A stretch of DNA of 35,732 bases from an uncultured Pseudoflavonifractor sp. GTDB taxonomy: Bacteria; Bacillota; Clostridia; Oscillospirales; Oscillospiraceae. Numbering within the stretch: the stretch's first letter is position 1; every line of letters begins with the position of its first letter. This document shows, one piece after another, positions 5,159 through 10,136 of the stretch. The notes under the pieces were generated by a model. The model did not search any database. It saw nothing but the letters and a program-made list of their open reading frames with translations, and was not told the origin of the DNA. Where the stretch lies: contig CANPTT010000022.1 of NCBI GenBank assembly GCA_947577065.1, positions 1-35,732 of the forward strand. Reading direction: 5' to 3'. Both the position numbers and the translations under genes were made by a program.

Positions 5159-5854
5159 ATGGTTTCCGCCTGGCTTGTATTAATGCTCCACACACTTTTC
5201 TTTCCCCTTCGGCTGGATCACGCCGCCGGCTCCTTCCCCAGGACCCTCAAGCCCGATGAGGAGCGGGAGTATCTGGACCGCTACGCCGCCGGGGACCAGG
5301 AGGCCAGGGACGCCCTCATTGTACATAACCTTCGACTGGTGGCCCACATCGTCAAAAAATACTACACCCAGTCCTGTGACCAGGACGATCTGATCTCTAT
5401 CGGCACCATCGGGCTCATCAAAGGGATCTCCACCTTTAAGCCCGACCGAAACGTGCGCTTGGCCACCTATGCCAGCCGGTGTATCGAAAATGAGATCTTA
5501 ATGCACTTCCGGTCCCAGCGCAAGCTCCAGGGGGAGGTCTCCCTCTCCGACACCCTGGATGCCGAGGGAGAGGCCGGATCCCTGTCCCTCATGGACGTGA
5601 TCCGGGTGGACGACAACATGCTAGAGGAGCTCTCCGCCAAGGATGCGGGCAAGGCGGTGCGGGAGTGCGTGGAGGAGTGTCTGGATGAGCGGGAAAAGCT
5701 GGTCATCACCCTGCGCTACGGACTTACCGGCGAAAATCCTCTGACCCAGAGGGAGATCGCCCAACAGTGCGACATCAGCCGAAGCTATGTGTCCCGGATC
5801 GAAAAAAAGGCTTTGGAAAAGTTGAGAACGGCCCTGGAAAAGGAGGTTTGCTAA
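5159..5854 (+). CDS. sigK: RNA polymerase sporulation sigma factor, pro-sigma-K
   Basis: Late mother-cell sigma factor of sporulation. The 231-aa protein begins with a hydrophobic stretch (MVSAWLVLMLHTLFFPL, residues 1-17) that resembles the pro-sequence removed by SpoIVFB in Bacillus, followed by GSFPRTLKPDEEREYL. Region 2 is clear (NLRLVAHIVKKYY; DDLISIGTIGLIKGI; RLATYASRCIENEILM). The region 4 helix-turn-helix is TQREIAQQCDISRSYVSRIEKKAL. Start ATG 5159 has GAGGGAGG about eight bases upstream. An in-frame TTG at 5141 is less likely because it overlaps that site. The gene is uninterrupted, with no skin-type insertion. AATAGAAT at 5121-5128 vaguely resembles a sigma-E -10 element, but I see no convincing -35 partner. 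SigE/SigF-like alternatives are less likely given the pro-sequence and the FP-x-PL-like motif. Confidence 0.93.
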   Translation: MVSAWLVLMLHTLFFPLRLDHAAGSFPRTLKPDEEREYLDRYAAGDQEARDALIVHNLRLVAHIVKKYYTQSCDQDDLISIGTIGLIKGISTFKPDRNVRLATYASRCIENEILMHFRSQRKLQGEVSLSDTLDAEGEAGSLSLMDVIRVDDNMLEELSAKDAGKAVRECVEECLDEREKLVITLRYGLTGENPLTQREIAQQCDISRSYVSRIEKKALEKLRTALEKEVC

Positions 5855-5925
5855 ACTCCGCCAAGGGCGACCGCCCGCGTTGGGGCCGGGGCCCTGCCAG
5901 AAAAGGTAATTTTTTATAACGCCGC

Positions 5926-5972
5926 CAAAAAAACAGGAGGGCGCTTCATTTTTGAAGCGCCCTCCTGTTTTT
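5926..5972. terminator. Bidirectional terminator between sigK and the YtxH-like gene
   Basis: Perfect 18-bp stem (5931-5948 with 5953-5970) and a four-T loop, flanked by an A-run on the left and a short T-run on the right. It serves sigK and the convergent small gene. Confidence 0.9.
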
Positions 5973-6145
5973 CAGTGCAGACCCATCTCGTCGGACAGAT
6001 CCTCCATCACTTGGCCCACCGTCTTCATGGCCTTTTCCGCGGCTTTTTTCACATTGGTCTTTCTTTGCGGCGCCATGATAGCTCCCAGCGCCACGCCGGC
6101 CGCTACGCCCATGGTCATGCCCTTGGCAAATTCATGCTGTTTCAT
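5972..6145 (-). CDS. Small YtxH-like protein
   Basis: A 57-aa protein beginning MKQHEFAKGMTMGVAAGVALGAIMAPQ: one short glycine/alanine-rich hydrophobic segment (residues 10-26), then a basic/amphipathic helix. This layout is typical of YtxH-type small envelope-associated proteins. ATG 6145 is preceded by AAGAGGTGG. The frame extends upstream to 6247, but that would add a very basic run (KKRRKRWKR) and has no clear ribosome site. It converges on sigK and shares its terminator. The molecular function is unknown. Confidence 0.75.
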   Translation of the reverse strand: MKQHEFAKGMTMGVAAGVALGAIMAPQRKTNVKKAAEKAMKTVGQVMEDLSDEMGLH

Positions 6146-6225
6146 CCGTTTCCACCTCTTCCTTCGCTTTTTTAAGAAGCCCTCGCTCCCACTTTTATTA
6201 TTGCCCCGGTCCACGCAAAAAATCA

Positions 6226-6254
6226 TTGCGAAAATATCCATTGTCATTTATAAT
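6226..6254 (+). promoter_or_regulatory. Promoter for the PyrC-like operon
   Basis: TTGCGA (6226-6231), 17-base spacer, perfect TATAAT (6249-6254). About 75 bases separate the -10 from the ATG at 6329. Confidence 0.75.
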
Positions 6255-6328
6255 GAAAAAAGAAACCAGCGGGGCGGGGCAAGGGTCCCGGCCCCCTTTT
6301 TACGGCGGTGGAAAGGAGCTGTCACAGC

Positions 6329-7606
6329 ATGAAGACCCTCATTCGGCGGGGACGGCTGGTGGATCCGGTGGGCGGCATCGGTGGAGTGCTGGATATTCTT
6401 GTGGAAAACGGAAAAGTCGCCGTCATCGGCAGCGATATCTCCGCCCCGGACGCACAAGTCATCGAGGCGTCAGGGCATATCGTCTGCGCCGGGCTGGTGG
6501 ATCTTCACGCCCACCTGATGGAGCCCGGATTGGAATACCGGGAAACCATCGCCACCGGCGCCAAAGCGGCAGTGGCGGGCGGCTTTACCTCGGTGGCCTG
6601 TATGCCCGACACCCATCCCCCCATCGACGTACCCGGCGGGATCACATATATCAAAGAGCTTGCCGCTCAAGCCGGAGCGGCCCGGATCTTTCCGGTGGGC
6701 GCCCTGTCCATCGGTCTTCAGGGGCAGGAGCCCTGCGACTATGAGGAACTGAAGGCCGCCGGGGCGGTGGCCCTCTCCGACGCGAGACCTATCCGCAATG
6801 CCAATCTGCTCCGGGACGCTATGATCCTGGCCCACCGGCAGGGGTTGACACTGCTGTCCTGCTGCGAGGACCCGGACCTTACCCAAAGCTTTGCCATCAA
6901 CGAAGGGCGGGTCTCCCGGCAGCTGCGTATTCCCGGGCGGCCCGCCATTGCAGAGGAATTGCAGGTCATGCGAGAGGCCATGCTGGCCGAGGAGACGGGA
7001 GCCGCCGTCCACATCTGCCGAATATCCACCGCCAAGGCAGTGTCCATCGTCCGGCGGTACAAGAAAAAAGGCGTGCCCATCACCTGCGCGACCTGCCCGC
7101 CCTATTTTACCTTTACCGAAAATGAGGTCCTGCAACAGGGCTCACCGGCCAGGCTGGAACCGCCCCTGCGGACTCCTGCCGATGTGGAGGGCATTCTCGA
7201 GGGTTTGAAGGACGGCACCATCGACGCCATCGCCTCGGGCCACTTTCCCCTGGCCGAGGCAGAGACCGCCCGGCCTCTGATCCAGGTCCCCGCCGGGATC
7301 ACAGCGTTGGAGACCGTTCTGGCCGCCTGCCTCACCGCCCTCTATCACACGGGGGAAATGCGCCTGTCCGACATTCTGCGAAAGCTGACCAGCAACCCCG
7401 CCAACATTCTGCGGCTACCCAATGGGGGGCGGCTGGCCATTGGGCTGGACGCCGATCTGGTGATCTTTGACCCCGAGGAGGAGTGGACAGTGGAGCCTCA
7501 GAGCTTTTGTTCCCTGGGGCGAAACACTCCTTTTGCCGGAAAGGTCTTAAAGGGGAAGGTCAAATACACCATGGTAGGCGGAACGCTGGTTTACCGGGAA
7601 GAGTAA
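6329..7606 (+). CDS. Dihydroorotase-like protein lacking catalytic residues (pseudo-PyrC)
   Basis: Its 425 aa run collinear with class I dihydroorotase (PyrC) from GRLVDP at the start to TPFAGKVLKGKVKYTMVGGTLVY at the end, so the family is clear. Activity is doubtful. The first metal pair survives (DLHAHL), but the substrate Arg of HxHxREPG is Met (HLMEPG), MPNT is MPDT, the DDG motif reads SDAR, the metal His of AHCED is Cys (SCCED), CHIST is CRIST, NPPLR is EPPLR, and ATDHAPH with the catalytic Asp is ASGHFPL. These comparisons are to remembered family motifs. The frame is intact, with a good site (GGAAAGGAG) before ATG 6329, so it looks maintained rather than decaying. It may be structural or regulatory, as with non-catalytic dihydroorotase-like subunits. 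It is 12 bases from the next gene. Confidence 0.85.
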   Translation: MKTLIRRGRLVDPVGGIGGVLDILVENGKVAVIGSDISAPDAQVIEASGHIVCAGLVDLHAHLMEPGLEYRETIATGAKAAVAGGFTSVACMPDTHPPIDVPGGITYIKELAAQAGAARIFPVGALSIGLQGQEPCDYEELKAAGAVALSDARPIRNANLLRDAMILAHRQGLTLLSCCEDPDLTQSFAINEGRVSRQLRIPGRPAIAEELQVMREAMLAEETGAAVHICRISTAKAVSIVRRYKKKGVPITCATCPPYFTFTENEVLQQGSPARLEPPLRTPADVEGILEGLKDGTIDAIASGHFPLAEAETARPLIQVPAGITALETVLAACLTALYHTGEMRLSDILRKLTSNPANILRLPNGGRLAIGLDADLVIFDPEEEWTVEPQSFCSLGRNTPFAGKVLKGKVKYTMVGGTLVYREE

Positions 7607-7618
7607 AAGGAGAAACAC

Positions 7619-7957
7619 ATGAAAAAAGGCTATCTTTTGGGCGTCCTTGGCTCCCTCCTTCTAGGTCTGCTGACCTGGAAATTTCTGTTCCCGCAAATCT
7701 CCGGGCTGGACGGCATCTACATCTTCTTTCTGGGCTTTTTCTGCCTGTGGACCGCCGCCGCCATCCTTCTGGGGCTCCTCAGTCCCGACTCGCCCCGGCC
7801 CTACCGGTGGGGCTATGCCGCCATCTTCTTTCTCCTGTTTCTCAATCAACTGGGACAGGCTTTTTTCCACTTTCCGTCCTACATCCTGGTGGATATTCTG
7901 GCGCTGTCCTCCCTCTATCTCCTCCAGCATTTTGAGCGCCGCCAAAAAGACAACTAA
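7619..7957 (+). CDS. Small integral membrane protein, unknown function
   Basis: A 112-aa protein made almost entirely of hydrophobic segments: about 5-22, 33-54, 64-82 and 86-101, suggesting four membrane helices with a short basic tail (HFERRQKDN). ATG 7619 follows AAAAGGAG with good spacing and lies 12 bases after the PyrC-like gene. The PyrF-like gene starts 26 bases after it, so all three are probably co-transcribed. I do not recognise the family. Its place between two degenerate pyrimidine-enzyme relatives hints at a shared role, perhaps membrane anchoring, but that is inference. Confidence 0.75.
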   Translation: MKKGYLLGVLGSLLLGLLTWKFLFPQISGLDGIYIFFLGFFCLWTAAAILLGLLSPDSPRPYRWGYAAIFFLLFLNQLGQAFFHFPSYILVDILALSSLYLLQHFERRQKDN

Positions 7958-7983
7958 ATCCTATCAAAGGAGGGACCGGTCTT

Positions 7984-8757
7984 ATGTCCTTTGATCGTCT
8001 GCAAAGCCTTATCAAAACCACCAAATGTCCCCTCGCTGTGGAACTGGCTCCTACCGGGGAAGAAAGCGCGGAGGTCTTTCTTCCTTTCGCTTTATCTCTA
8101 ACGGACGCCCTCCGGGGCACAGCCCCCGCCCTACGGTTGCCCCTGGGGGAATATGTCCGCCTGGGCTGGCAAGGAGTAAAGGCTCTGGAAGAGCTGTTGG
8201 CCCATGCCCGGGAGGCTGGAGTATTCACTATTCTGGACGCCTCCCCCGGCCGACTCCCCCCCTTCTCCCTGAACTCCGACTGTCTCATTGTCAGCGGCTA
8301 TCTGGGCTCCGATACCTTAGCCCCCATGCTGGAGGCGGCTAGGGGGGAGGACAAGTGTCTGTTTGTTCTGGCCCACTCCGCCGATCCCAGCGCCGGAGAG
8401 CTCCAGGAGTTGGTGGCGGGGGACCGGCTGGTCTACCAAGTGGTAGGGGACCTGGCTCAGCGGCTGGGAAAGAATGACCTGGGCCGGCTTGGGTACAGCC
8501 GGATGGGTATCGTAGCGGAGGGGGTATATCCCTCCGATCTGCGAGCCCTTCGGAAGCGGTGGGAGCAGAGCTTTCTGTTGGTCTCCGGCCCCGTCGGAGA
8601 TGTGCGCTTCGCCTTTGACCAGTATGGGCGCGGGGCCATCGTCACCACGGTGGAGCCCCTTCTGGCCGCCCGGGAGCGTGGGGGGGATCCCTCCGCCGCC
8701 AAGGAGCGCTGCCAGGCTCTGCGGGACGAGCTGAAGCAGTATGTCACCATTCTTTGA
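7984..8757 (+). CDS. Orotidine-5'-phosphate decarboxylase-like protein lacking catalytic residues (pseudo-PyrF)
   Basis: 257 aa with the framework of the long-type OMP decarboxylase (PyrF): MSFDRLQSLI at the start, YLGSDTLAPM, FVLAHSADPSAGELQEL, LGYSRMGIVAEGVYPSDLRALRK. The catalytic D-x-K-x-x-D loop (family form DIKRGDI) reads DASPGR, so Lys and the second Asp are lost and the following helix appears shortened. The early LDTS-type Asp motif is VELAPTG. The phosphate-gripping PGYGAQGG is VSGPVGDVR, and the final phosphate Arg (NSSRG) is TTVEP. Decarboxylation of OMP therefore seems impossible. The frame is open, with AAAGGAGGG before ATG 7984, and codon use matches its neighbours. It belongs to the same transcription unit as the PyrC-like protein. 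Confidence 0.82.
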   Translation: MSFDRLQSLIKTTKCPLAVELAPTGEESAEVFLPFALSLTDALRGTAPALRLPLGEYVRLGWQGVKALEELLAHAREAGVFTILDASPGRLPPFSLNSDCLIVSGYLGSDTLAPMLEAARGEDKCLFVLAHSADPSAGELQELVAGDRLVYQVVGDLAQRLGKNDLGRLGYSRMGIVAEGVYPSDLRALRKRWEQSFLLVSGPVGDVRFAFDQYGRGAIVTTVEPLLAARERGGDPSAAKERCQALRDELKQYVTIL

Positions 8758-8849
8758 GGAGACCGCGCTGCGATATGCCCCTTTTGCAGGGGTGAGCCGC
8801 TCCCCGGCGGATCGTACCTCACCGTGAAAAGAGGGAAAGAGCTTTGTCG

Positions 8850-9980
8850 ATGACCCGAATCTACCTCATCCGCCACGCCCAGTCTGAGGGTAACCTGTAC
8901 CGCCGGGCCCTGGGCTGGTATGACGGGCGTGTGACCGCCCTGGGCTGGAAGCAGATCGCCGCCTTGGAGGCCCGGTTTCGGGATATCTCCATCAACGCCG
9001 TCTACGCCAGCGACCTTAGCCGCGCCAAGGAGACCGCCCAGGCCGTCACCGTTCCTAAGGGCCTGGAACTTCACTCCCAACCCGCTTTTCGGGAGATCCA
9101 CCTGGGGGAACTGACCAACATCCCCTATGGGGAACTCATTTACCATCACCCCGCCCTATACGACGCCTTCTTCTCCTACTCCCCCCAATGGGCTCCAGAG
9201 GGGGGAGAGACCTTTCAGCAGGTGGCCCGGCGTGTCACTTCCGCTTTTTTCCAGGTGGCCGCCACCCACTCCGGGGAGACCGTCGCCATATTCTCCCACG
9301 CCATGGCCATCCACTGCCTTCAGTCCGCTCTCCGGGGCAAGCACCCCGGTCTTGTCACCGATCTGCCGCTGGGGGAAAACACTTCCGTATCCTGCTATGA
9401 GGTCCGGGGAAGCAGATTTCGCATCTTGTTTGAAAATGACGCCTCCCATCTGACGGCTGAACTCACCTCCGCAAGACTGCGGGAAGGCCGGGGCACGCCG
9501 CCGCTGGTTTGGTTCCGTCCCATGGACCTGCACCGCAGGGAGGAGGCTCAGTTTTACTGCTCCGCCCGGCAGGACGCCTGGCAGACCCTGCACGGATCCC
9601 TCCGGGGCTTTGACGGACATGGCTTTCTCTCCGAGGCCCGGGAGCAGCTCCAATGGGATCCACGGGCTCTTCAGCAGGTCATGCTCCGGGGACGGACCGT
9701 TGGACTGCTGCAGTTGGCTACCCTTCAGGATGTGCGGGATGGGGCGGGATACATCCCCTTTTTCTATCTCCGCCCCGATTACCGCCGCCAGGGGATCGGG
9801 ATCCAGCTTCTGGGACAGGCTGTCAGTGTATACCGGCCTATGGGCCGCAAGTTCCTGCGGCTTCTCTGTGACCCTGCCAATATTCCCGCCCAGAGCTTTT
9901 ACCGCCGCTACGGATTTGTAAAGGCCGGACAGGCACCGGGGGCTTTGGGACCTTTGGACCTGCTGGAAATGCCCTTGTAA
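8850..9980 (+). CDS. Histidine phosphatase-GNAT acetyltransferase fusion
   Basis: 376 aa with two domains. Residues 1-190 are a histidine phosphatase (phosphoglycerate-mutase superfamily): IRHAQSEGN with the phospho-acceptor His, SDLSRAKETAQ, and the second catalytic His in FSHAMA. Residues about 220-376 are a GNAT acetyltransferase, with the acetyl-CoA loop RPDYRRQGIGIQLL and a typical C-terminal NIPAQSFYRRYGFVKAG. I chose ATG 8850 because GAGGGAAAGAG lies about nine bases upstream. A TTG two codons earlier is also possible. It follows the PyrF-like gene by 92 bases with no clear terminator. Substrates of both halves are unknown. One protein that dephosphorylates and acetylates related substrates is a guess. 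Confidence 0.85.
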   Translation: MTRIYLIRHAQSEGNLYRRALGWYDGRVTALGWKQIAALEARFRDISINAVYASDLSRAKETAQAVTVPKGLELHSQPAFREIHLGELTNIPYGELIYHHPALYDAFFSYSPQWAPEGGETFQQVARRVTSAFFQVAATHSGETVAIFSHAMAIHCLQSALRGKHPGLVTDLPLGENTSVSCYEVRGSRFRILFENDASHLTAELTSARLREGRGTPPLVWFRPMDLHRREEAQFYCSARQDAWQTLHGSLRGFDGHGFLSEAREQLQWDPRALQQVMLRGRTVGLLQLATLQDVRDGAGYIPFFYLRPDYRRQGIGIQLLGQAVSVYRPMGRKFLRLLCDPANIPAQSFYRRYGFVKAGQAPGALGPLDLLEMPL

Positions 9981-10041
9981 ATTCCCCATTTCCCGTTTCT
10001 TTGGCAAAAACAGAGATTTTATTTTTTCTTTCCCCCTACTC

Positions 10042-10070
10042 TTTACGAATTCCTTCGTGTCTTATATAAT
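10042..10070 (+). promoter_or_regulatory. Promoter for Na/phosphate cotransporter
   Basis: TTTACG (10042-10047), 17-base spacer, perfect TATAAT (10065-10070). Predicted initiation near 10077 gives a leader of about 60 bases and supports the TTG start at 10137. Confidence 0.75.
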
Positions 10071-10136
10071 AATAGTGTTCGCTTTTTGACCTATATGTTC
10101 GGTACTTCCGCATTTGAGAAGGGGGAGGACAAGCCC

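What the first reader, a model, noticed from the sequence alone, without database searches (positions are those of the whole stretch)
6226..8757. Operon pairing a catalytically dead PyrC relative with a catalytically dead PyrF relative
Two adjacent genes from the same pathway family both keep their fold signatures and open frames but have lost nearly every active-site residue. A four-helix membrane protein of unknown family lies between them, and the run has its own promoter. Loss in both, without stops or frameshifts, points to reuse (scaffold, sensor or new chemistry) rather than decay. It may be an undescribed pyrimidine-linked regulatory or membrane complex.
Basis: partly seen in the sequence, partly recalled or inferred. 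Interest (0 to 1): 0.78.

Follow-up and report, generated by a model that had tools for sequence, protein, structure and literature searches.

The report
Retained dead PyrC–PyrF gene pair
Two enzymes for making pyrimidines have lost their working parts in a small group of related bacteria, yet their genes are still kept intact by selection, so the proteins seem to have taken on another, non-enzymatic job of which I found no description.

Summary
The window has promoter, leader terminator, pyrC-like gene, small four-helix membrane protein and pyrF-like gene. The PyrC-like protein has lost 6 of 9 catalytic positions, the PyrF-like 9 of 10 plus its active-site and phosphate loops. In 7 of 15 congeners the orthologues are canonical or nearly so. 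In a six-species clade, the window included, they are dead: PyrC in 5 of 5 that keep it, PyrF in 6 of 6. They stay open and under purifying selection: dN/dS 0.12 and 0.19 for PyrC, 0.18 and 0.31 for PyrF. Four of the six carry a separate canonical pyrC and type-1 pyrF. The window's assembly, 84.6% complete, shows no carB, pyrB, pyrD, pyrE or second pyrC or pyrF over cut-off. So retention for a non-catalytic role is likelier than decay. The membrane protein is probably not the novelty: weakly similar ones lie between canonical pyrC and pyrF elsewhere. Dead dihydroorotases are known (Pseudomonas pDHO). My searches found no dead OMP decarboxylase, nor such a pair kept without its pathway. The function is inferred; a non-catalytic adapter is my best guess.

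The parts
6226..6254 (+). promoter TTGCGA-17-TATAAT
   Evidence: 10 of 12 consensus letters; same pattern upstream of pyrC in 9 of 12 genomes examined, window included, among them 5 of 5 with a dead PyrC
6271..6301 (+). leader terminator-like hairpin (6271-6294) and T run (6297-6301) between promoter and pyrC
   Evidence: hairpin plus T run in the leaders of 9 of 9 genomes in which the promoter pattern was found, with differing stem sequences. Against: not listed by the generic scan; 6256-6306 alone folds no better than shuffles (z -0.44); 6256-6331 z -2.28
6329..7606 (+). pyrC-like gene: pseudo-dihydroorotase, 425 aa
   Evidence: TIGR00857 343.8 bits; 6 of 9 catalytic positions lost, DDG shortened; dN/dS 0.122 against G014
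7619..7957 (+). small four-helix membrane protein, 112 aa, unknown family
   Evidence: AlphaFold2 pLDDT 91.3, helices 3-23, 30-50, 60-83, 88-111; no Pfam or NCBIfam match; similar proteins between pyrC and pyrF elsewhere; no PDB fold match at E <= 0.001
7984..8757 (+). pyrF-like gene: pseudo-OMP decarboxylase, type 2, 257 aa, about 50 aa shorter than canonical
   Evidence: TIGR02127 89.4 bits, below cut-off 110.6; 9 of 10 catalytic positions lost; model pLDDT 85.4, best PDB match 3r89, E 3.4e-14, TM 0.83 by query length; dN/dS 0.183 against G014
8850..9980 (+). downstream histidine phosphatase-GNAT fusion, a neighbour of the pyr genes in the family; context, not itself degenerate
   Evidence: PF00300 158.2 bits and PF00583 46.7 bits; found in 32 of 38 loci of the genome-contig scan

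Best explanation
The window carries the remnant of this genus's own pyr operon (pyrC - membrane gene - pyrF), kept after the de novo pathway was lost or replaced by another pyr operon. Shown: catalytic and substrate-binding residues are lost in a clade with shared changes, and both genes are still under purifying selection. Inferred: they are expressed from the old promoter and leader. Inferred, my best guess: both now work without catalysis, as folded adapter or scaffold subunits. The ex-dihydroorotase keeps most of its non-catalytic invariant positions; the ex-OMP decarboxylase keeps above all the helices around residues 141-160 and 181-200. They would be kept for protein contacts rather than for making or sensing a pyrimidine. 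The membrane protein may anchor them where present, but is dispensable.
For: Canonical or near-canonical orthologues in 7 of 15 congeners, at the same place where the flanks are in the fetched stretch. H232R, N278E, K72R, G154A and the DDG deletion in 5 of 5 dead PyrCs. The six species are split from six others at 99/99 in an unrooted 3-gene neighbour tree; NaPi alone groups five of them at 97/98. Dead-pair dN/dS with 95% bootstrap: PyrC 0.122 (0.090-0.163), 0.193 (0.141-0.263); PyrF 0.183 (0.119-0.270), 0.307 (0.221-0.426); canonical PyrC 0.101 and 0.162, canonical PyrF 0.073 and 0.195. About 37 and 24 stops would be expected per neutral substitution per site; the frames of 5 PyrC and 6 PyrF are open over their length. 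Of 135 non-catalytic invariant positions 113-123 are kept in each dead PyrC. Position 180 is C, C, F, F, Y and 309 is L, Y, Y, F, C among the dead, which argues against a new active site. PyrF lost its phosphate loop. The pair is kept with a separate canonical pyrC and type-1 pyrF (G007, G014, G011) and where no carB, pyrB, pyrD or pyrE is found over cut-off (G000, G008).
Against: No partner, expression or phenotype is known. G012 lost both genes; G005 and G013 have no PyrF-like match and no syntenic pyrC match; G015 has no PyrC at the old place. So the role is not essential across the genus. PyrF constraint is weaker: up to 0.31 within pairs and 0.38-0.53 in deeper dead-dead and dead-canonical comparisons, which also fits slow erosion. 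All six assemblies are fragmented (30-220 contigs in the listing for most), two are 67% complete (G008, G011). G008 has a second TIGR00857 match over cut-off (342 bits, with Y for D153), probably another amidohydrolase, but not excluded as a dihydroorotase. dN/dS is pairwise NG86 with dS up to 1.1. PyrC was not modelled, so 'surface' is not tested.
Confidence: 0.55

Rival explanations
1. Slow decay: both genes are relics of a pathway no longer needed, and low dN/dS reflects recent inactivation.
For: G001 looks like an early stage: no carB, pyrB, pyrD or pyrE over cut-off, PyrC R65C and N278D, PyrF I to M only. G012 has deleted the pair. PyrF branches in the dead clade are long.
Against: The dead changes are shared by five PyrCs, so loss predates their split; dS between dead copies is 0.47-1.1. 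The 5 PyrC and 6 PyrF frames are open. dN/dS of dead PyrC is close to that of canonical PyrC.
Confidence: 0.17
2. Subunits of the replacement pathway, as Pseudomonas pDHO is for aspartate transcarbamoylase: dead PyrC assembles PyrB, dead PyrF assists another pathway enzyme.
For: An inactive DHOase is needed for ATCase activity in P. aeruginosa (PMC7053772, passages). G007 and G014 have a pyrB in the new operon.
Against: No pyrB, pyrD, pyrE or carB over cut-off in the assemblies of the window species (84.6% complete) and G008 (67%). G005 and G012 have a related new operon without the dead pair.
Confidence: 0.08
3. New enzymatic activity, or a sensor for another ligand, in the remodelled barrels.
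For: Some new residues are fixed in 5 of 5 dead PyrCs (R at 232, E at 278, A at 154); H61 and D153 stay in 5 of 5, H63 in 4 of 5. Reuse of such barrels is common (recalled).
Against: Other former metal and substrate positions differ between dead copies, H63 is R in G007, D305 is G in two of five; PyrF loops differ in length and sequence between subclades.
Confidence: 0.15
4. The proteins still work as dihydroorotase and OMP decarboxylase with unusual residues, being the only copies in this genome.
For: No other pyrC or pyrF is found in the window's assembly; the C4 hit, just over the PF00215 cut-off with its neighbours, reads as ribulose-phosphate 3-epimerase (my reading of the frame).
Against: Three metal ligands, the catalytic Lys and two Asp of PyrF and the phosphate loop are gone; carB, pyrB, pyrD and pyrE are not found either; four relatives with dead copies carry a separate canonical pyrC and type-1 pyrF.
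Confidence: 0.03

Closest known systems
Pseudomonas pDHO (pyrX), the inactive DHOase subunit of class A2 aspartate transcarbamoylase
   Same: a DHOase homologue without activity, kept intact by selection
   Different: pDHO works with PyrB (PMC7053772, passages); here no pyrB is found in the window's assembly and the neighbour is a dead pyrF
Pseudo-DHOase domain of fungal CAD-like proteins
   Same: inactive DHOase domain lacking zinc ligands and substrate residues
   Different: fused into a CPS-ATCase polypeptide (PMC4581275 and PMC7053772, passages); here free-standing in a bacterial gene cluster
OMP decarboxylase type 2 (TIGR02127)
   Same: barrel and order of elements; closest solved relative by sequence and fold is 3r89
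   Different: 9 of 10 catalytic or phosphate-binding positions and the active-site and phosphate loops lost; about 50 aa shorter
OMP decarboxylase suprafamily enzymes with other functions (KGPDC, HUMPS; recalled)
   Same: the same barrel reused
   Different: those are enzymes with conserved active sites; here the site is not conserved among the dead copies
Catalytically dead paralogues that activate an enzyme (T. brucei AdoMetDC prozyme, trypanosomatid deoxyhypusine synthase; PMC5201418 and PMC3663545, search listing only)
   Same: dead metabolic enzyme kept for protein contacts
   Different: those pair with an active paralogue of the same enzyme; the window's assembly shows none

Membership tests
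type I dihydroorotase (TIGR00857) | family score above cut-off over nearly full length | tested here: met
   343.8 bits, cut-off 279.05, residues 22-424 of 425
type I dihydroorotase (TIGR00857) | metal ligands H61, H63, D153, H180, H232, D305 (Aquifex numbering, roles recalled) | tested here: not met
   H180C, H232R, D305G in the window
type I dihydroorotase (TIGR00857) | substrate residues R65, N95, H309 (recalled) | tested here: not met
   M, D, L in the window
OMP decarboxylase type 2 (TIGR02127) | family score above cut-off | tested here: not met
   89.4 bits, cut-off 110.6
OMP decarboxylase type 2 (TIGR02127) | catalytic D, K, D-x-K-x-x-D set and phosphate-binding Q and R (roles recalled) | tested here: not met
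   9 of 10 checked positions changed or deleted
OMP decarboxylase type 2 (TIGR02127) | fold | tested here: met
   predicted model against 3r89: E 3.4e-14, TM 0.83 by query length
Pseudomonas-type pDHO | DHOase homologue without catalytic residues | tested here: met
   by sequence only
Pseudomonas-type pDHO | pyrB partner in the genome | tested here: not met
   no pyrB candidate in the 84.6% complete assembly
Pseudomonas-type pDHO | required for ATCase assembly and activity | not testable with these tools
   needs biochemistry
pseudoenzyme | loss of catalytic residues together with purifying selection | tested here: met

The most novel reading that the evidence does not exclude
The first pseudo-OMP decarboxylase, kept together with a pseudo-dihydroorotase as a two-protein non-catalytic module that outlived its own metabolic pathway, because PyrC and PyrF of this lineage already had a second, structural job before the pathway was lost or swapped.
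Probability: 0.4. Interest if true: 0.75.

Novelty: new variant of a known kind. Interest (0 to 1): 0.58.

Why it matters
Pseudoenzymes are mostly thought of as arising by duplication next to an active sister (recalled). Here two neighbouring genes of one pathway seem to have lost catalysis in place, and living relatives show what look like stages: canonical, first changes with the pathway gone (G001), dead and retained, deleted (G012). That makes it testable whether ordinary PyrC and PyrF carry a hidden non-catalytic role. It also warns that annotation by family score would report a working dihydroorotase here, since the dead PyrC scores above the curated cut-off.

Tried and rejected
Rejected: that the genome's other PF00215 hit is a second pyrF; its frame reads as ribulose-phosphate 3-epimerase (my reading). 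Rejected as likely: that the membrane protein is an innovation of the dead pair; proteins of like size, hydropathy and position lie between canonical pyrC and pyrF, though identity to the window's is only 11-24% in eight of eight canonical-side sequences and 35% in G011, with one invariant Trp. Rejected: that the new pyr operon of G007 lies at the same site in the window's genome; rplA and the rplJ leader are adjacent there (gene names by my reading).

Tried without result: Rfam on 5800-10100 of the window, no match, and on seven relatives' loci, only a glycine riboswitch and a tRNA. PDB fold search with the membrane protein, no match at E <= 0.001. Pfam on 12 membrane proteins, no family in more than 2 of 12 (UbiA, best E 0.0007; none for the window's). 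Paper searches: pseudoenzyme with dihydroorotase, 2 papers on viral infection; 'inactive dihydroorotase', 7 papers, two of them read in passages; pseudoenzyme with orotidine, 0; pyrC/pyrF/Oscillospiraceae/pyrimidine, 15 of 102 listed, none of the 15 holding the family name; OMP decarboxylase/catalytically inactive/paralog, 15 of 1,474 listed, none of the 15 holding 'OMP decarboxylase'; pseudoenzymes in metabolism, 11 papers, none on this by title and start of abstract. Family-wide search for the PyrF-like protein in 400 genomes drawn from a larger group: 180 matched at 1e-20; in the listed part, cut by the tool, only the window, G014 and G007 matched over residues 1-257 at 50% identity or more; I did not read the residues of most other matches. 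The genome-contig scan used two short peptide patterns, one of which many canonical proteins do not match, so its 38 loci are a part of what exists. Trees disagree on whether G000 or the G007/G008 pair is nearest to G014, so whether G000 lost the new operon or never had it is open. I did not model PyrC or any complex; the two structure jobs went to PyrF and the membrane protein.
Full report
OBSERVATION. The three frames are open as described, with Shine-Dalgarno-like sequences before each start. The first is a nearly full-length match to type I dihydroorotase (343.8 bits, cut-off 279.05), the third a match to type 2 OMP decarboxylase below its cut-off (89.4 against 110.6 bits). Against the Aquifex enzyme the PyrC-like protein has R65M, N95D, H180C, H232R, D305G and H309L and one residue less in the DDG motif, while H61, H63 and D153 remain (residue roles recalled). 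The PyrF-like protein has lost 9 of 10 checked catalytic or phosphate-binding positions and about 50 residues, most of them in loops of the active site. Its model (pLDDT 85.4) is still an OMP decarboxylase barrel: best PDB match 3r89, E 3.4e-14.

ORIGIN. The genus set has 16 genomes, the window's included. Seven (G001, G002, G003, G004, G006, G009, G010) carry orthologues with canonical residues, except that G001 has PyrC R65C and N278D and PyrF I to M. Where the fetched stretch reaches, these genes lie between the same sigma-factor gene and the HisPhos-GNAT and Na/Pi transporter genes; G009's stretch shows no sigma gene and G003's contig is too short for either side. In six of the seven a pyrD lies within about 2.2 kb behind pyrF; G001 has none. 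In six species the copies at this place are dead: PyrC in G000, G014, G007, G008, G011 (5 of 5 that have one), PyrF in these and in G015 (6 of 6). G012 has deleted both, so that sigma and HisPhos are close together. G013 and G005 have no PyrF-like match; G005's only strong pyrC match is the one in its new operon, and G013's is below the cut-off. An unrooted tree of three neighbouring genes in 12 genomes splits the six dead species from the other six at 99/99 (G003, G005, G012 and G013 not in it). The NaPi tree of 15 genomes groups five of them at 97/98 and leaves G015, a long branch, open.

WIDER SET. Of the other 34, 34 of 34 PyrF rows have canonical residues where sequence is present (L127 is partial), and 32 of 32 PyrC rows likewise (L120 is partial; L124 and L127 carry none). 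Of 21 further PyrF loci, which may overlap with these in species, 20 are canonical and one (L028, G027) has Lys to Met.

WHAT REPLACED THE PATHWAY. G007 has an operon pyrC-carB-pyrK-pyrD-pyrF(type 1)-pyrE-pyrB between rplA and the rplJ leader (pyrK and the ribosomal genes by my reading). In G014 the pyrC end of a like operon lies next to the same rplJ leader, while its rplA lies on another contig beside other genes, so that locus is not closed. G005 and G015 have related operons elsewhere; G012's lies on contigs without that flank. G011 has pyrC, pyrD, pyrE and type-1 pyrF on contig C6 in another order, and no pyrB or carB over cut-off (67% complete). In the window's genome rplA and the rplJ leader are adjacent, and carB, pyrB, pyrD, pyrE and any second pyrC or pyrF are missing over cut-off, with only weak partial hits. 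The assembly is 84.57% complete, so auxotrophy is likely but not proven. G001 (96%) and G013 (98%) also lack carB, pyrB, pyrD and pyrE over cut-off, so pathway loss recurs in the genus. G008 (67%) lacks them too; it has a second TIGR00857 match over cut-off (342 bits) with Tyr for D153, beside genes that read like nucleoside hydrolases, which I take for another amidohydrolase.

SELECTION. Pairwise NG86 dN/dS with 95% bootstrap: dead PyrC G000-G014 0.122 (0.090-0.163), G007-G008 0.193 (0.141-0.263); canonical PyrC G002-G006 0.101, G009-G010 0.162. Dead PyrF 0.183 (0.119-0.270) and 0.307 (0.221-0.426); canonical PyrF 0.073 and 0.195. HisPhos 0.219 and 0.250 in the dead pairs. Membrane protein 0.344 (G007-G008) and 0.215 (G000-G008). 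Deeper comparisons, dead-dead and dead-canonical, give higher PyrF values, 0.38-0.53. The dead PyrCs share H232R, N278E, K72R and the DDG deletion in 5 of 5, so the pairwise values mostly measure evolution after the loss. Among 144 columns invariant in 37 canonical PyrCs (G001 and L120 left out), the dead ones changed 4-6 of 9 catalytic and 12-22 of 135 other positions (Fisher p 0.0001 to 0.04). In PyrF 67-75 of 134 invariant positions are changed in the four short copies and 40-45 in G011 and G015, so PyrF is far more eroded than PyrC. Its best-kept stretches are residues 141-160 and 181-200.

REGULATION. The promoter TTGCGA-17-TATAAT (6226-6254) and a GC hairpin with a T run (6271-6301) precede pyrC. 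The promoter pattern was found in 9 of 12 genomes examined, five with a dead PyrC and four canonical; it was not found in G003, G009 and G010, and G015 was not examined. In 9 of 9 the leader holds a hairpin with a T run, whose stem sequence differs between groups. The generic scan does not list the window's hairpin. That stretch alone folds no better than shuffles (z -0.44); with the start region z is -2.28, and the model then pairs the T run with the Shine-Dalgarno stretch. How the leader acts is unknown.

MEMBRANE PROTEIN. It is predicted as four helices (pLDDT 91.3). Eight proteins of like size and hydropathy lie between pyrC and pyrF in six genomes with canonical genes (G010 two, G004 two, L100, L101, L109, L112), and one in G011. 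Identity to the window's is 11-24% and 35%, with one invariant Trp, so their common origin is likely but rests on position as much as on sequence. It is absent from G014, which keeps both dead genes.

MECHANISM. Shown: residue loss shared in a clade, retention under purifying selection, and presence of the pair both with and without other pyr genes found. Inferred: expression, and a non-catalytic role. I prefer an adapter or scaffold role: catalytic and ligand residues are lost and mostly vary among the dead copies, while most non-catalytic positions of PyrC are held. A pDHO-like service to PyrB is unlikely, because no pyrB is found in two assemblies with the pair (G000, G008, both incomplete) and pyrB is present in two without it (G005, G012).

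KNOWN OR NEW. Dead dihydroorotases are known: P. aeruginosa pDHO (PMC7053772: passages) and fungal CAD-like proteins (PMC4581275: passages). I found no report of a dead OMP decarboxylase or of such a pair in the searches, which cover openly licensed PMC papers only and of which long lists were seen in part. I file it as a new variant of a known kind (pseudoenzymes), not as a member of the pDHO system.

Noticed in passing
L069 3800-13200 (G007): A pyr operon with type-1 pyrF sits between rplA and the rplJ leader, splitting a ribosomal protein gene cluster; the site is uninterrupted in the window's genome and several congeners.
   Followed up: partly
L028 (G027): A full-length PyrF with the catalytic Lys changed to Met (DTMRGD) in a 95% complete genome with no TIGR00857 match; possibly an independent dead OMP decarboxylase.
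   Followed up: partly
L076 (G001): PyrC with R65C and N278D and PyrF with DMG for DIG in a 96% complete genome without carB, pyrB, pyrD or pyrE over cut-off: perhaps an early stage of the same process.
   Followed up: partly
window 6256-6331: The leader folds so that the T run of the terminator pairs with the Shine-Dalgarno stretch of pyrC (z -2.28); untested.
   Followed up: no
L077 8274-9174, L082 3948-4571, L100 2312-2704, L101 7609-7992, L109 7605-7982, L112 4775-5140: Small predicted membrane proteins without a firm Pfam family between canonical pyrC and pyrF, sometimes two in a row.
   Followed up: partly
window 8850-9980: Histidine phosphatase fused to a GNAT domain, near pyr genes in 32 of 38 loci of the scan; its role there is unknown.
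   Followed up: no
window 5972-6247: Small divergent minus-strand frame upstream of pyrC; by eye a like sequence lies near the same genes in some congeners.
   Followed up: no
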